Of a stretch of 64,000 nt of DNA, positions 58,640 to 64,000 are shown in pieces; within the stretch, counting starts at the first letter, position 1, and each line of letters starts with the position of its first letter. This DNA is from Acanthopleura granulata. Its lineage: Eukaryota > Mollusca > Polyplacophora > Chitonida > Chitonidae. The notes under the pieces are model-generated. The model ran no database searches. It had not been told where the DNA came from and saw only the letters and a list, made by a program, of their open reading frames with translations. The translations under genes were made by a program, and so were the position numbers. Where the stretch lies: positions 11,578,765 through 11,642,764 of the forward strand of contig JABBOT010000004.1 in NCBI GenBank assembly GCA_016165875.1, given 5' to 3'.

Positions 58640-59578
58640 GTGTCTTTTTTATTTAAGTTAGGAGTTAATCTCCTCATTACCTGGTTTGGATTATGTGGTT
58701 TTAGTGAAGTTCTTGAAATCCTAAACTTCATTTCATAACAGATCAGTACTTGATTGTAATAGAGGGTTGCCTTTATTTGGGGTTCAAACCATTCAGGCTT
58801 GAATCCCTATTGTTTTTGTTTGGATTAATATTATTATTATTCTCGGCAATTTTGTCTTGAGAAAACAGCGAGTCGCACAGCTATGAAACTTCAGTATGTT
58901 TTAGCTATCGACCTAAAGTTTTGCACCTAAACTTTTGGACACTTATGATCACGTGACTTGATGGCTGTATTGGATTTTGATGAAAACCAGTAAAAATCTG
59001 CATTTCCCAAACGGCTGACGCGTTAGAGATGAAATTTAAAATGCAGTTGCACAAAGCCTAGGTACATTCAGAGTGGTTTTGAGGACTTCTCAGGAAAAGT
59101 GTACAAGCTCGCTATTGGGTGAATATGTCATGTGACCGAAAAAATTTGCTAATAATTTCTACACTTGTACAGGTGATGTCCTACAAACAGCCCTATCTGA
59201 TGATAGGATATGCAAATTTTGGAAAACCGGAAGTGACGTCCTCAAAACGGAAGTGGGTATATCTCCATAACAAATCAATCTAGAGACGCAATCTTAAGGC
59301 CTAACAGCATCCCAATGCATGGAGACAAATTTTACCTAACCGGAAGTTACATCAGTGAACGAAAGTACTACATGCTAAAAAAGATCACCATATTTGCAAG
59401 TTTCGAAATTGAAAAACTTATGCAGCTAAAATGGCTGGGTAGAAATGAATGAAATTCGCCACCAGCATAGAGCCCTGAAGAAGAAAATATCCAAAAGACA
59501 GTTCCATTTGGTAATGAATCTACTTGTAGTTCGAACTCCTATCTAGACAATCCCGTGTGAAAGACATAACCATCCAAC
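58640..59578. other. Spacer between TSR1 and the virus-like element; ETS/CRE-like motifs
   Basis: No gene seen. Between 59.2 and 59.4 kb the word CGGAAGT occurs three times (from 59228, 59248 and 59341). The first is part of CCGGAAGTGACGTC (59227-59240), an ETS site fused to a CRE/ATF half-site. The left end of the mobile element must fall somewhere in this interval, but I could not identify a terminal repeat. Confidence 0.4.
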
Positions 59579-62500
59579 ATGACTAGTATAGATTATTTGA
59601 TTGACGAGATTCTTGCAGAGTACGAGCCTGGGTATATTCTCGATAAACCTATTCCGGAACACGCCGAAAACCGTCTCCACCGGCCGTTGAGGCCAAAACG
59701 GCCATTCATTGACATTCACCCTCCCCCGGTCCAGCCACTGGGTTGAGATTCTGAACGATGCCAAAGACGAGTTTGAAGTTGATGACGCCACTGCGGTCTT
59801 CTTCACGTGGCGGGTTGAAGCAGAGGACCCACTTGACATCGGCGATATTGAAATCGCTGATGGTATGCACGCCAGAGCTGGGCGACTGGCCCTTGATGCC
59901 CGCATGGCGGATGCAAGGGCGGCTCAGTTTCTCACCGCGCTTCCTGAGGAGGATGAGTTCTTACCGCGAATCAAGTTCTGACTGGGATTGACAGCGCGTT
60001 CTATCAGAACGCCTACCTTGTCACCGCGGTCGTGTAAGGAATCTACCACGTGCCAGCCTCGCTCCGCTAAGGGATGGCGACCTTAGCTGTGTGGCCCAGA
60101 GACTTGTGGAGCACTTCGAGGGAGCCTTGCGGGGTCAGGGCCTCACTCCCGCAATGCGTCAGAAAATCAAAGAGTGGGAGGAGAGGATGCATGAAACGGG
60201 CGCTGCGGTCGATGATGTGGCAAAATTGGAAAGGGTCTTTAGAAGGGCAATCATCCTGTGGGACATTGCCGGCGAGGACATACAACAGCGGCAAATACCA
60301 GGTCAGTAGGTGGAAACCAATACAGCTCATTTATCACAAGGGCCACGCCGGGTCCAAAGACCTCCACTGCCCCCAAAGCAGAAAGGTCCACATCTATGAG
60401 GGCGACGTCTGGTAGGTCATCGGGGAAGCTACCCAGGGCGAGCCCTTAGCTGCCTGGCTGTTGGGTGGGCAAGACAGGCAACTCGATGTCGACCAGTTCG
60501 TGCTACAAGACGGTCACACCTACAGGACACAGGGGGCCCACGAGAGGCCCCAAGAAATCTGCACCAAGATAGATAACTTCGAACTGGCCGAGAGGGGGTT
60601 CGGCGAGAACCACTCCACCAGCATCATGGCGAAAGAAAAGAATGACTGGAAGCCAATCCCAGCCAGCCTGCTTGACGATATCCAGAAGGCTTGCCTGGAG
60701 CATAGCCAGGAATACGATGGACTACAACACGAGGGGCGTCCTCAACATCGCCATGAAAGCCTGCTACCTGGCCTCCTTTCAGGGAGAAAACGATGCTAAG
60801 CCCTATTTTGAACGTTTCGGACACCCAACCCACCGCATGACCCGTGTAGCCATCAATGAACCCCTCCCCAAAGAAGAGGCTTCCCCGAGGTCCAGGAGTG
60901 GGAATTCACCGACTGTCATCCCCTCGTGGTTTAGGAGGCATTTAGCAGAGAATGGGTGGAACCCAACGCCGCTCCTTGCCTTCCTGAAAAAGTCTGGCCT
61001 CCTGAAGTCCTTCATGGTAAGTGAAGCAATCATTACCTTTACCTACCAGACCAATCAAGGGTGCAACATCATCGGCAAATTCACGCAGGGAAACGGAAAA
61101 CGGCTGACCAGGCGGCTAGCGACAGACTAGGGTGAACTTGACTTCCTTGTGCGGGACACCCGTCAAAGCGGCACCCTGGTTGCAGCACCAATGAAATGCT
61201 TCCTAGGCCATATCCTCATACACTACGATGGCTCCCATCCTCAGTAAACTCACTTAAGGGCATCTATGTTGGCCTATGCCCACATCAACCTCCTCTCTGT
61301 GCTTTCGAGGTTCGAACCCGAGGAAGCCGTCAGGATGGCAACCGATTCCATTTATGTGAGAAAGCAGCACTGCACAAGCTCGAAGGGATTGAGGTGTATG
61401 TGGCCCCCAAGGCCTGCAGCTGCAACGAAGCTTGTTGTGTCTATTGTCTCACAGGGATAACGCGTCTTCCTCCGGTTGCCCCAGCCAAATGGCGGGACTA
61501 GGAAGAAAGGATATACATGCCCATGGAACATGTAGCCTACCTCGCCAAGCCCGAATACCGAAGACAGCAAAAAGACACGCCAGACTCTTCTTCACCACGT
61601 CACGATAACCCACTGACCAGACACCACTATCTGAATGGTGGCGGAGGCAGAGGAAAAACGACGAGAGCTATGGAGCTCTTCCGCGGTAAACACCTCCTCG
61701 TCTTCACGCCCAGTCATCGGTTGGCTAAAGAGATGCGTGCCAGAGCGGTCAAAGCCCAGACTTATAACAGCTTCTTCCGTTGGAGTGTTCCGACTGAGTG
61801 GATCCCGGAAAGAATGGGTCAGAAGTTTGTCCCTCGCGTCATCATCTGGGATGAGGTATGGACTCTGCCCCGGCCCATATTGGAGACCTTTCTCGAATGG
61901 CTCGAACACAAGGGGGTTCAGGTTATCTCCTGCGACGATCAGGACAATCACGACTGGCTGCGTCAAGCTGCAGACTACTATGAAGAGGTCGAAGAAGATC
62001 CAGTCCTTAGAACCCTCAAAAAGCAGCCAGGTCCAGTGTTAAGAAATGCAAAAGGTTCTCTCCGGTTGTCTTGGATGGGGTAGATTCTTTGAAACCTGCA
62101 AGCCCGGTCACCTCATCTTCGCCTCGAGACAGAAAGTCCGCGACCGAGCACAGGAAATGCTATTTCAGCGGCACAAGGGTATCTTGCCCAACACCCCAGT
62201 GCCCCTGCTGTACCACCCGACAGACAGCCAGAAACAAAACATAGTCCTGGTCCCGCGCACGAACGATGGTCGATGTCAGCATGGAGGCAGCAGGGGCAGC
62301 CTTCCAGACCGATGACTAGCGCCTTGGTTATGCCCTCACAGTCCACTAGAGGCAGGATATCACGATCAAAGACGTCCAAAAATTTCGGAACAATCGACGA
62401 TTACCTCAAATGGTCAAACCTTGGCTATCTTGCCGTATGAAGAGTGGAGTATCCCAGCCAGCTCGAATCGGTAGTCTGCCCCCCGAGGAGTGTTCCGAGG

Positions 62501-62810
62501 TAAGCCAAATCACCGAGCAGCAACTTCGCAAAACCATCCAGAGGAAGTTGGTGGCTTACAAGCGCCAGGATCAAGCCAAGGGACCCAGGTTTAACCTGAA
62601 GGTCGATCACATCATTCTTCTCAAGGAACAGCAAAATAACCGCTGTGCCGCTTCCAATATTAGGCTCCAAATGGCTTACAAACCAAAGTATACCTTGCAG
62701 TTCAGTGTAGACGGGTTTTACAACTCCATGGGCCACAGTAATGATAACATTGGGTTGACCTGTCTCAAATGCAACGGAATAAAGGGATGTGCAGTTCTCA
62801 AACCTGAGGA
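59579..62810 (+). pseudogene. Broken PolB-SF1 helicase-HNH replication protein gene
   Basis: Probable start ATG at 59579 (MTSIDYLIDEIL), about 3.2 kb, or roughly 1070 codons if intact. Order: N-terminal region of unknown role; family B polymerase palm with a motif A-like MKACYLASFQG (60753-60785) and a motif C-like ATDSIYV (61338-61358); SF1 helicase with Walker A GGGGRGKTT (61637-61663), Walker B-type PRVIIWDEV (61832-61858) and a motif V-like GYALTVH before 62347; HNH/zinc nuclease from about 62590 (RCAAS, SVDGFYNSMGH, CLKCN). Breaks: in-frame stops at 60413, 61128, 61245, 61499, 62040, 62317 and 62347. Frame changes near 59740, 59985, 60310, 60710, 61362, 62030 and 62260. The motif A Asp position is Ala (GCC, 60750-60752), and the HNH block has lost several usual residues. 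Domain calls are by eye. The protein would replicate the element's DNA. Confidence 0.7.
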
Positions 62811-63760
62811 CCCCAGCCGGAGGAAGATGAGTGTGGCGGGGCACCGCGAGAGGTTCCTCGCGGAAAACTCCCCACTGCGGGCCATCTACCAGATAGTACA
62901 ACATAGCCTCGTCAGGTTTAGTTACCGAGCATCCGAGCCTACACATCCAGGGACCACACTGGATCAGACCACCCTCCAGCTGACCGGGCTGGTACAGATA
63001 GCGAACGCCTGCCCTGAAGGGAGCTTTTGCTCATAAAGGCCAACAGGCTGGCCTGGAACAGTGGAGGAGCTCCTTTGTGCCATCGTTTCTGTCTTGATGG
63101 CCTCGGAAGGCTGCTTACCAGTGGGTCGGGTCACTATTCCGTTCAAAGCCGCCACGACTGCGGGTAACCGGTTCACCCACTCAGAAGAACGCCCAGAAGG
63201 GAGCCGCATGTCTTGGGCGTATTGGTTCCCGAACAGTCGCTCAGGTAGGGTCCGATTGAACCGCTCAACGATCGCCTGGTCCCGATGGATGTCCACACCC
63301 CTATGCCTGACAGAAACCCCATGCTTCGAGAGCAGTGGGCTCCCTGCACCCATGAACTCCCTCCCAGGGTCGATCTGCAGCAGTTCAGGCCGCCTCAGAG
63401 ACCCCTGCTTATAGAAACGGCCCAGATCATCAGCAACCTCTTGGGGTCCTTTTGTGGTTAGTTCCTTTGAATCGGCTGGCGACATCGACAACTGTGAATC
63501 CAGCACAGGGCATACTTGTAGGTGCGCTTGCCCACCTTGTCGTGTGATAGAAAGAGCAGATCAGCTTCATGGAGCTGATTTGGTGCAGAAACATCAAATT
63601 TTTGCCGTGGATTACGCCGTCGGGGTAGTAGGAAAATCTGCCAGATGGCCAATCGCGAGCTGTGCCTTCAGACACCTTCGCAGCAGAAGCTAGTTTCTTG
63701 ATGGCGGCAATGCCTCTCCAGTAGCCCTTGGGCCTATATTATATCTTCAATAGACGAATA
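62800..63760 (-). pseudogene. Broken rve/DDE integrase gene (Polinton-type)
   Basis: Reads right to left. The N-terminal part starts near 63760 (KGYWRG at about 63728, interrupted by a TAA just upstream). Catalytic core: first Asp in HEADLLFL (about 63561), second Asp in QIDPGREF (codon 63369-63371), Glu in AIVERFNRTL (codon 63264-63266). The Asp-to-Glu step is 35 positions, as in retroviral-type integrases, and all three acidic residues are kept. A C-terminal domain follows in another frame (RYLYQPGQ at about 63005 to VTKPDEAMLYYL and DGPQWGVF) and ends around 62805. Frameshifts lie near 63620-63650, 63490-63510 and 63005. The N- and C-terminal regions flank the rve core as in Polinton integrases. 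It would insert the element's DNA into host chromosomes. It converges on the replication gene, with 3' ends meeting at about 62.8 kb. Confidence 0.75.
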
Positions 63761-64000
63761 GAAAACTGGTCGGCCAAGATAGTAGGCACCATAAGCAAGG
63801 TATTCCAGCAGCCTGATAAGTCTCTAACAGGCGGCAGCCACAGGTTCAGACAGCTACCCGGTCGTCCCCAGGAGGTTGGACGGGCTCTCCAGCACCTTTG
63901 CTGCGAAATGCATTACGGTCTTTTCGTTTTGCCGCCAGATATCGAACGACTTTTATGCGTTATCAACCAGTACATGGACTATAGAACCAGGAATTTTGTT
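63745..64000 (-). pseudogene. Further element-encoded frame, partial, unidentified
   Basis: On the - strand the frame running from the right edge towards 63745 contains protein-like stretches (FDIWRQNEKTVMHFAAKVLE, about 63883-63942; RLIRLLEYLAYGAYYLG, about 63768-63818) broken by three stop codons (near 63953, 63862 and 63822). It lies directly upstream of the integrase on the same strand and shares the element's composition. No family recognised. It may be the 3' end of a neighbouring element gene. Confidence 0.35.

What the first reader, a model, noticed from the sequence alone, without database searches (positions are those of the whole stretch)
59579..64000. Virus-like integrating element with a fused PolB-helicase-HNH replication protein
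Canonical Polinton/Maverick elements carry PolB, an rve integrase, a packaging ATPase, a protease and capsid genes. Here the polymerase palm is followed in one apparent reading unit by an SF1 helicase (Walker A GGGGRGKTT, Walker B IIWDEV) and an HNH nuclease, and an rve integrase converges from the other strand. A single protein combining synthesis, unwinding and nicking would be an autonomous replisome. It may mark a distinct lineage of polinton-like elements. The domains are seen in sequence. The single-protein reading and the lineage claim are inference. My impression that related fusions occur in other aquatic invertebrates and in some fungi is unverified recollection.
Basis: partly seen in the sequence, partly recalled or inferred. 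Interest (0 to 1): 0.88.

Follow-up and report, generated by a model that had tools for sequence, protein, structure and literature searches.

The report
Virus-like element with fused replication protein
The end of this window holds the decayed remains of a virus-like mobile element whose copying enzyme, unwinding enzyme and DNA-cutting domain form one protein; this design is already known from viruses of single-celled organisms, and here it is seen in many copies in what is probably an animal genome.

Summary
Window 59739-62799 aligns colinearly with residues 43-1158 of a 1,160-residue protein that is intact elsewhere: N-terminal region, vOTU-like motifs, protein-primed PolB palm, SF1 helicase, HNH. 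A convergent rve integrase lies at 62967-63738. The window copy is a fossil in many frames; the single-protein reading comes from relatives: 24 of 31 database proteins of 1,000 residues or more carry palm motif C, Walker A and HNH in order in one frame. A predicted structure of one matches phi29 DNA polymerase and RecD2/Pif1/Dda helicases. Motif C lacks its first Asp (0 DTDS in 230 proteins), the published hallmark of 'Tlr1-like helicases' (pPolB-S1H) of polinton-like viruses, some of which also end in HNH. Right of 64000 the same element has an A32-type packaging ATPase and a capsid-like gene. The genome holds at least 144 merged helicase places. The 'novel fusion' claim fails: this is a new, probably animal, member of a known kind. 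No paper I saw describes it in animals, but key papers are not in the library.

The parts
59448..59543 (+). remnant of a small cysteine-rich ORF that precedes the replication gene in other copies
   Evidence: tblastn with an L026 ORF, 65% over 34 aa, E 3e-6
59739..59978 (+). N-terminal region of the replication protein (residues 43-118 of P0144); position of a terminal protein, not identified as one
   Evidence: 74% identity
60070..60349 (+). vOTU-like protease motifs: Cys block 60070-60099, His block 60332-60349
   Evidence: positions; conservation of the two blocks
60660..61412 (+). protein-primed PolB palm: motif A 60750-60767 (Asp lost in this copy), B 61068-61091, C 61338-61358 (ATDS)
   Evidence: 59% identity to P0144 402-664; fold match of P0144 to phi29 polymerase
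61502..62485 (+). SF1 helicase (Pif1/RecD2/Dda-like); Walker A 61637-61663, Walker B 61841-61858
   Evidence: AAA_30 E 8e-5, below cut-off in this copy; relative L029 E 5e-12, above cut-off
62641..62799 (+). HNH endonuclease domain, degenerate in this copy
   Evidence: weak, E 0.11; relative L011 just above Pfam cut-off; relative L029, PHROG endonuclease VII, E 3e-6
62967..63738 (-). rve (retroviral-type) integrase, in two overlapping frames, convergent to the replication gene
   Evidence: frames; alignment; relatives L011 and L029 above Pfam cut-off

Best explanation
This is a decayed, integrated polinton-like virus (PLV) of the Tlr1-helicase type. Its main replication gene encoded one protein of about 1,160 residues: N-terminal domain, vOTU-like protease, protein-primed PolB palm, SF1 helicase, HNH. 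Next to it lie an rve integrase, unassigned ORFs, an A32-type packaging ATPase and a capsid-like gene. Shown here: domain order, motifs, predicted folds of palm and helicase, gene neighbourhood, multicopy spread, inverted termini in one copy. Inferred: the N-terminal domain primes synthesis at the ends of a linear genome and the vOTU trims it off; the palm copies by strand displacement; the helicase opens the duplex ahead; the HNH nicks or cuts DNA as a homing-type or resolving nuclease; the integrase inserts the linear product; the ATPase packages it into capsids. The window copy, with its broken frames and lost catalytic residues, should do none of this now.
Against: No PolB profile is hit by sequence: Pfam on the 46 members of A6 at E 0.01 finds helicase families only, and no HNH family either. 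By Pfam, HNH passes its cut-off only in L011 and only just (21.5 against 21.4 bits); the L028 piece gave nothing. TP and vOTU rest on position and motifs; model confidence there is low. The capsid model is poor (pLDDT 47.6) and gives no proof of a double jelly roll. Inverted termini were found at both ends in one copy of three looked at, and no 6-bp target duplication was seen there. The window copy itself gives only weak Pfam hits.
Confidence: 0.9

Rival explanations
1. A canonical Polinton/Maverick with its own separate pPolB, into which a helicase and a homing nuclease gene were inserted or placed by chance decay.
For: rve integrase, A32 ATPase and capsid-like gene are Polinton-type genes.
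Against: Relatives have palm motif C, helicase and HNH in one frame (24 of 31); motif C lacks the first Asp (0 DTDS of 230); the ORFs scanned hit no PolB family. A genome-wide search for a separate pPolB was not made.
Confidence: 0.05
2. The element is now purely a transposon spread inside genomes, with capsid genes as relics, rather than a virus that forms particles.
For: Many places in this genome, most with stops or cut short; no relative confirmed in IMG/VR by 6 scans.
Against: Capsid-like frames stay open in several copies about 90% identical to L031, and 2,974 homologous proteins pass E 0.001 (120 listed, many on contigs of a few kb). This hints at selection on the capsid gene, but the contigs may be host DNA.
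Confidence: 0.4
3. A Helitron or other helicase-bearing transposon rather than a PLV.
Confidence: 0.02

Closest known systems
Tlr1-like helicases (pPolB-S1H) of polinton-like viruses, the Tetrahymena Tlr1 element and transpovirons (PMC11071308)
   Same: vOTU-like motifs, then palm, then SF1 helicase in one protein; first Asp of motif C missing; GIY-YIG or HNH at the C-terminus reported there; the Tlr1 element also has an rve integrase
   Different: Found here in a probably animal genome, with relatives in molluscs, a coral and Glomeromycotina; C-terminal domain is HNH, not the GIY-YIG of Tlr1
Canonical Polinton/Maverick
   Same: rve integrase, A32 packaging ATPase, capsid-like gene, integrated multicopy element
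   Different: Polymerase fused to SF1 helicase and HNH; motif C altered
OmPLV of Oxyrrhis marina (PMC12721341)
   Same: single helicase SF1 plus pPolB protein in an endogenous PLV
   Different: There the helicase is N-terminal, the exonuclease is complete and a tyrosine recombinase stands in for rve; here the helicase follows the palm and the integrase is rve
Cryptophyte PLVs with HNH-helicase fusions (PMC12220804)
   Same: HNH joined to a PLV helicase, rve integrase next to it in one cluster
   Different: There HNH is N-terminal to the helicase

Membership tests
Tlr1-like helicase / pPolB-S1H | palm with PolB motifs A, B, C followed by SF1 helicase in one protein | tested here: met
   fold matches; no PolB Pfam hit
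Tlr1-like helicase / pPolB-S1H | first Asp of motif C (DTD) replaced | tested here: met
   0 of 230 proteins hold DTDS; 89 matches of the motif C pattern, none with Asp there, most often VATDSIY (62) and VATDSLY (16)
Tlr1-like helicase / pPolB-S1H | vOTU protease with Cys and His before the palm | tested here: inconclusive
   motifs only: 36 of 37 covering rows keep H-N-x-H, and all 23 rows displayed of the 32 covering keep N-C-V (46 rows); fold not tested, low pLDDT there
Tlr1-like helicase / pPolB-S1H | TPR1/TPR2 and a terminal-protein domain | tested here: inconclusive
   phi29 polymerase alignment spans model 300-708; subdomains and TP not resolved
Tlr1-like helicase / pPolB-S1H | homing-type endonuclease (GIY-YIG or HNH) at the C-terminus in some members | tested here: met
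   L011 HNH just above Pfam cut-off; L029 PHROG endonuclease VII 3e-6; motif in 24 of 31; none of 46 rows at Pfam E 0.01
Polinton-like virus (Preplasmiviricota) | FtsK/A32-type packaging ATPase | tested here: met
   Pox_A32 E 2.9e-6 above cut-off in L011; window's own copy 63% identical over 84 aa in L010
[quoted passage not shown]
   Capsid_N in 11 of 11 rows, best 1.6e-4, below cut-off where the score is shown; UniRef calls P0328 Major capsid protein; structure model too poor
Polinton-like virus (Preplasmiviricota) | minor capsid protein and separate maturation protease | tested here: inconclusive
   several unassigned ORFs beyond the capsid-like gene, no Pfam match above cut-off
Canonical Polinton/Maverick | polymerase as a stand-alone pPolB with DTD motif C | tested here: not met
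   for the relatives' palm-bearing proteins
Canonical Polinton/Maverick | rve integrase | tested here: met
Canonical Polinton/Maverick | terminal inverted repeats and 6-bp target duplication | tested here: inconclusive
   inverted termini at both ends of the C1 copy, right-end repeats only at C25, neither at C10; no target duplication in the C1 flanks
OmPLV-type helicase-pPolB | helicase N-terminal to the polymerase | tested here: not met
   Walker A follows motif C wherever both were matched

The most novel reading that the evidence does not exclude
Animals and arbuscular mycorrhizal fungi each host an old, separate lineage of polinton-like viruses that copy themselves with one vOTU-palm-helicase-HNH protein and integrate with an rve integrase. 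The lineage bridges Polintons and Tlr1-type PLVs and still forms virions that move between aquatic invertebrates.
Probability: 0.3. Interest if true: 0.65.

Novelty: new member of a known kind. Interest (0 to 1): 0.42.

Why it matters
The papers seen tie pPolB-S1H proteins to PLVs, a ciliate element and giant-virus parasites (PMC11071308), and animal capsid genes to Maverick-Polintons apart from cnidarian ones (PMC10120064, passages). Abundant, capsid-bearing pPolB-S1H-HNH elements in invertebrate and fungal genomes would widen that group's known host range and supply many intact proteins with which to test whether one polypeptide can prime, unwind and copy a linear genome despite the altered motif C.

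Tried and rejected
Pfam on window fragments alone was too weak to decide; relatives settled it. PolB by sequence profile: no hit; the palm rests on motifs and fold. IMG/VR: 6 scans gave no confirmed relative; the tool's patterns were few, so absence is weak evidence. Capsid structure: model too poor to search. A 149-bp 97% inverted repeat flanking the L026 copy was first taken for its TIR, then dropped because no other locus then held shares it. A 574-bp 77% inverted pair around the C10 copy was also set aside: no terminal pattern of the C1 copy was matched inside it. TIRs around the window copy: none recognisable. Recalled, from no call: that H6WBE3 may be a transpoviron protein; a paper search for the accession found nothing. 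Literature searches that might have shown an animal or fungal pPolB-S1H element; I saw titles and abstract starts only, and none named one. Krupovic et al. 2016, the adintovirus paper and, by a recalled DOI, the coral polintovirus paper are not held, so absence from print is not shown. Against novelty in fungi: PMC7805220 (passages) reports PLV genes including a DNA helicase in Allomyces and recalls earlier 'Polintons' without capsid gene in Rhizophagus, which may be relatives of these.

Full report
What was checked. The window is C4:11578765-11642764 of an unnamed 606.5-Mb, 87-contig assembly. The reported stretch stands out by GC (0.53-0.54 against 0.35-0.44 in the other 2-kb steps). Frames there are short: none over 228 aa. 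On the window fragments alone, Pfam gave only weak AAA_30 (8e-5) and HNH (0.11) hits, none above cut-off.

Relatives in the same genome. The HNH fragment found 155 matches (150 of 516 candidates scored), a helicase piece 151 (150 of 403 scored), and a capsid-like piece 122 (106 of 958 scored). These counts are lower bounds for candidates but include split pieces; the 150 listed helicase rows merge to 144 places. One search fetched 20 stretches of about 10 kb: two of the window's own element and 18 others. Where pieces are kept, the 18 show one order: replication pieces on one strand, rve integrase converging from the other. L026 gave no rve match, and L020 and L023 lack several polymerase pieces. 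In some other copies the domains pass Pfam cut-offs: in L011 AAA_30 2e-11, rve 9e-8 and, only just, HNH 2.6e-4; in L029 AAA_30 5e-12 and rve 9e-10. The L028 HNH piece gave no Pfam hit. In L029 helicase and HNH share one open 422-aa frame, whose end matches PHROG endonuclease VII at 3e-6.

The single protein. A search with that frame gave 208 proteins (120 listed). A second search, with residues 1-420 of one of them (P0024), gave 157 (120 listed). Of the 230 distinct proteins in hand, 31 have 1,000 aa or more; 24 of these 31 carry palm motif C, Walker A and HNH in that order in one frame. The other 7 lack a match to at least one of the three patterns (stricter patterns in the table). P0144 (1,160 aa) aligns to window 59739-62799 over residues 43-1158. 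That is strong evidence that the window holds a broken copy of one long gene.

The rest of the element. Right of 64000 the window's own copy continues: an unassigned ORF (40% identical over 263 aa to an L011 ORF), an ATPase (63% over 84 aa to the L011 piece, which matches Pox_A32 at 2.9e-6, above cut-off) and a capsid-like gene, with further shared ORFs to about L010 7.1 kb, i.e. about 71.1 kb in window coordinates. In the C1 copy the capsid-like gene is open over 388 aa. It has 2,974 homologues at E 0.001 (120 listed), one called Major capsid protein by UniRef. Capsid_N is hit by 11 of 11 aligned rows, best 1.6e-4, below cut-off where the score is shown; a PDB profile search found no capsid and the structure model failed. 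So 'double jelly roll' is likely but unproven. Of 102 merged capsid-like places, 37 have the helicase within 10 kb, 35 of them on the opposite strand and downstream; 1,000 random placements gave a mean of 0.8 and at most 4. The two exceptions look like one duplicated copy on C1 and C81. Six contig lengths occur in both the replication and the capsid lists (362308, 29170, 14105, 11702, 10057, 6477), which suggests the same linkage elsewhere.

Termini. The C1 copy (L011, L031, L032) has inverted ends beginning ACAGGGTGTCCC, imperfect (pieces of 119 bp at 87% and 42 bp at 81%), with subrepeats at both ends, giving a span of 14.6 kb. The C25 copy shows the same subrepeats at its right end only, the C10 copy no outer end. 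The C1 flanks show no 6-bp duplication. No such ends are recognisable around the window copy.

Who has it. Named relatives: Elysia marginata, Elysia crispata, Desmophyllum pertusum and Sinanodonta woodiana; Diversispora, Gigaspora, Racocetra, Cetraspora, Ambispora and Rhizophagus. Proteins labelled 'Candidatus Thiodiazotropha' are probably clam-host contamination (inference). In a quick tree of 47 proteins that I chose, the 11 fungal rows form one group (SH-aLRT 100); the four named animal rows fall outside it in two subgroups, one with support 100 and one, holding the partial Desmophyllum row, with 89 (long branches noted there). The window copy scores best with P0144 of the second subgroup (1270 summed bits; the 12 proteins tried from P0144's side score 705-1270, the 10 from P0122's side 526-1080), L029 with P0122 of the first. 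Host: an animal is inferred from these relatives; no marker confirmed it.

What it is. PMC11071308 (section 10 read; passages) describes Tlr1-like helicases as vOTU-palm-SF1 helicase proteins with TP variants, the first motif C Asp missing, and GIY-YIG or HNH at the C-terminus. The window element fits the features that could be decided here; vOTU, TPR and TP stay open. It therefore belongs to a known kind, and that paper's authors predict such palms to be active. OmPLV (PMC12721341, passages) has the reverse order. Cryptophyte PLVs (PMC12220804, passages) have HNH on the other side of the helicase. PMC10120064 (passages) surveyed protists and left animals out of its genome set; it notes that metazoan capsid genes cluster as Maverick-Polintons, except cnidarian ones. 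PMC7805220 (passages) reports PLV genes with a DNA helicase in the fungus Allomyces and mentions earlier Polintons of Rhizophagus. None of the passages seen reports this architecture in molluscs or Glomeromycotina, but the founding 2016 paper is not held.

How it probably works. Priming at linear ends, self-cleavage by vOTU, strand-displacing synthesis with the helicase in cis, HNH nicking, rve-type insertion and packaging by the ATPase are inferences from the domains. No activity was shown. The most uncertain step is the HNH: homing-type selfish nuclease, or a replication or resolution nuclease. Its presence at the same end in 24 of 31 long proteins, and in fungal as well as animal members (P0185 of Racocetra among the 24; HNH motif also in P0213 of Gigaspora), favours a kept function over a passing insertion.

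Noticed in passing
G000:C2:15432532, 15438692, 15444852: Three HNH fragments of equal score spaced exactly 6,160 bases apart: part of the element seems to lie in a tandem array.
   Followed up: no
G000:C18:438627 and 444237; C10:500113, 623291, 692719: Further fragments with equal scores, hinting at local or segmental duplication of old copies.
   Followed up: no
P0014, P0025, P0123: Some relatives carry an insertion of roughly 80-160 residues between helicase Walker A and Walker B; in P0014 it holds two repeats.
   Followed up: no
P0322: One open frame of 643 aa joins the capsid-like protein and the A32 ATPase.
   Followed up: no
L010:8572-8681 (-), about 72.6 kb in window coordinates: A stray 78% identical piece of the element's small cysteine-rich ORF in inverted orientation without a polymerase beside it; a second fragment or the far end of the element.
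   Followed up: partly
L026:716-864 and L030:3641-3493: A 149-bp inverted repeat of 97% identity flanks one copy but was not found in the other loci held.
   Followed up: partly
NCBI records named Candidatus Thiodiazotropha: Eukaryotic virus-like genes appear in symbiont MAGs of lucinid clams, probably host contamination.
   Followed up: no
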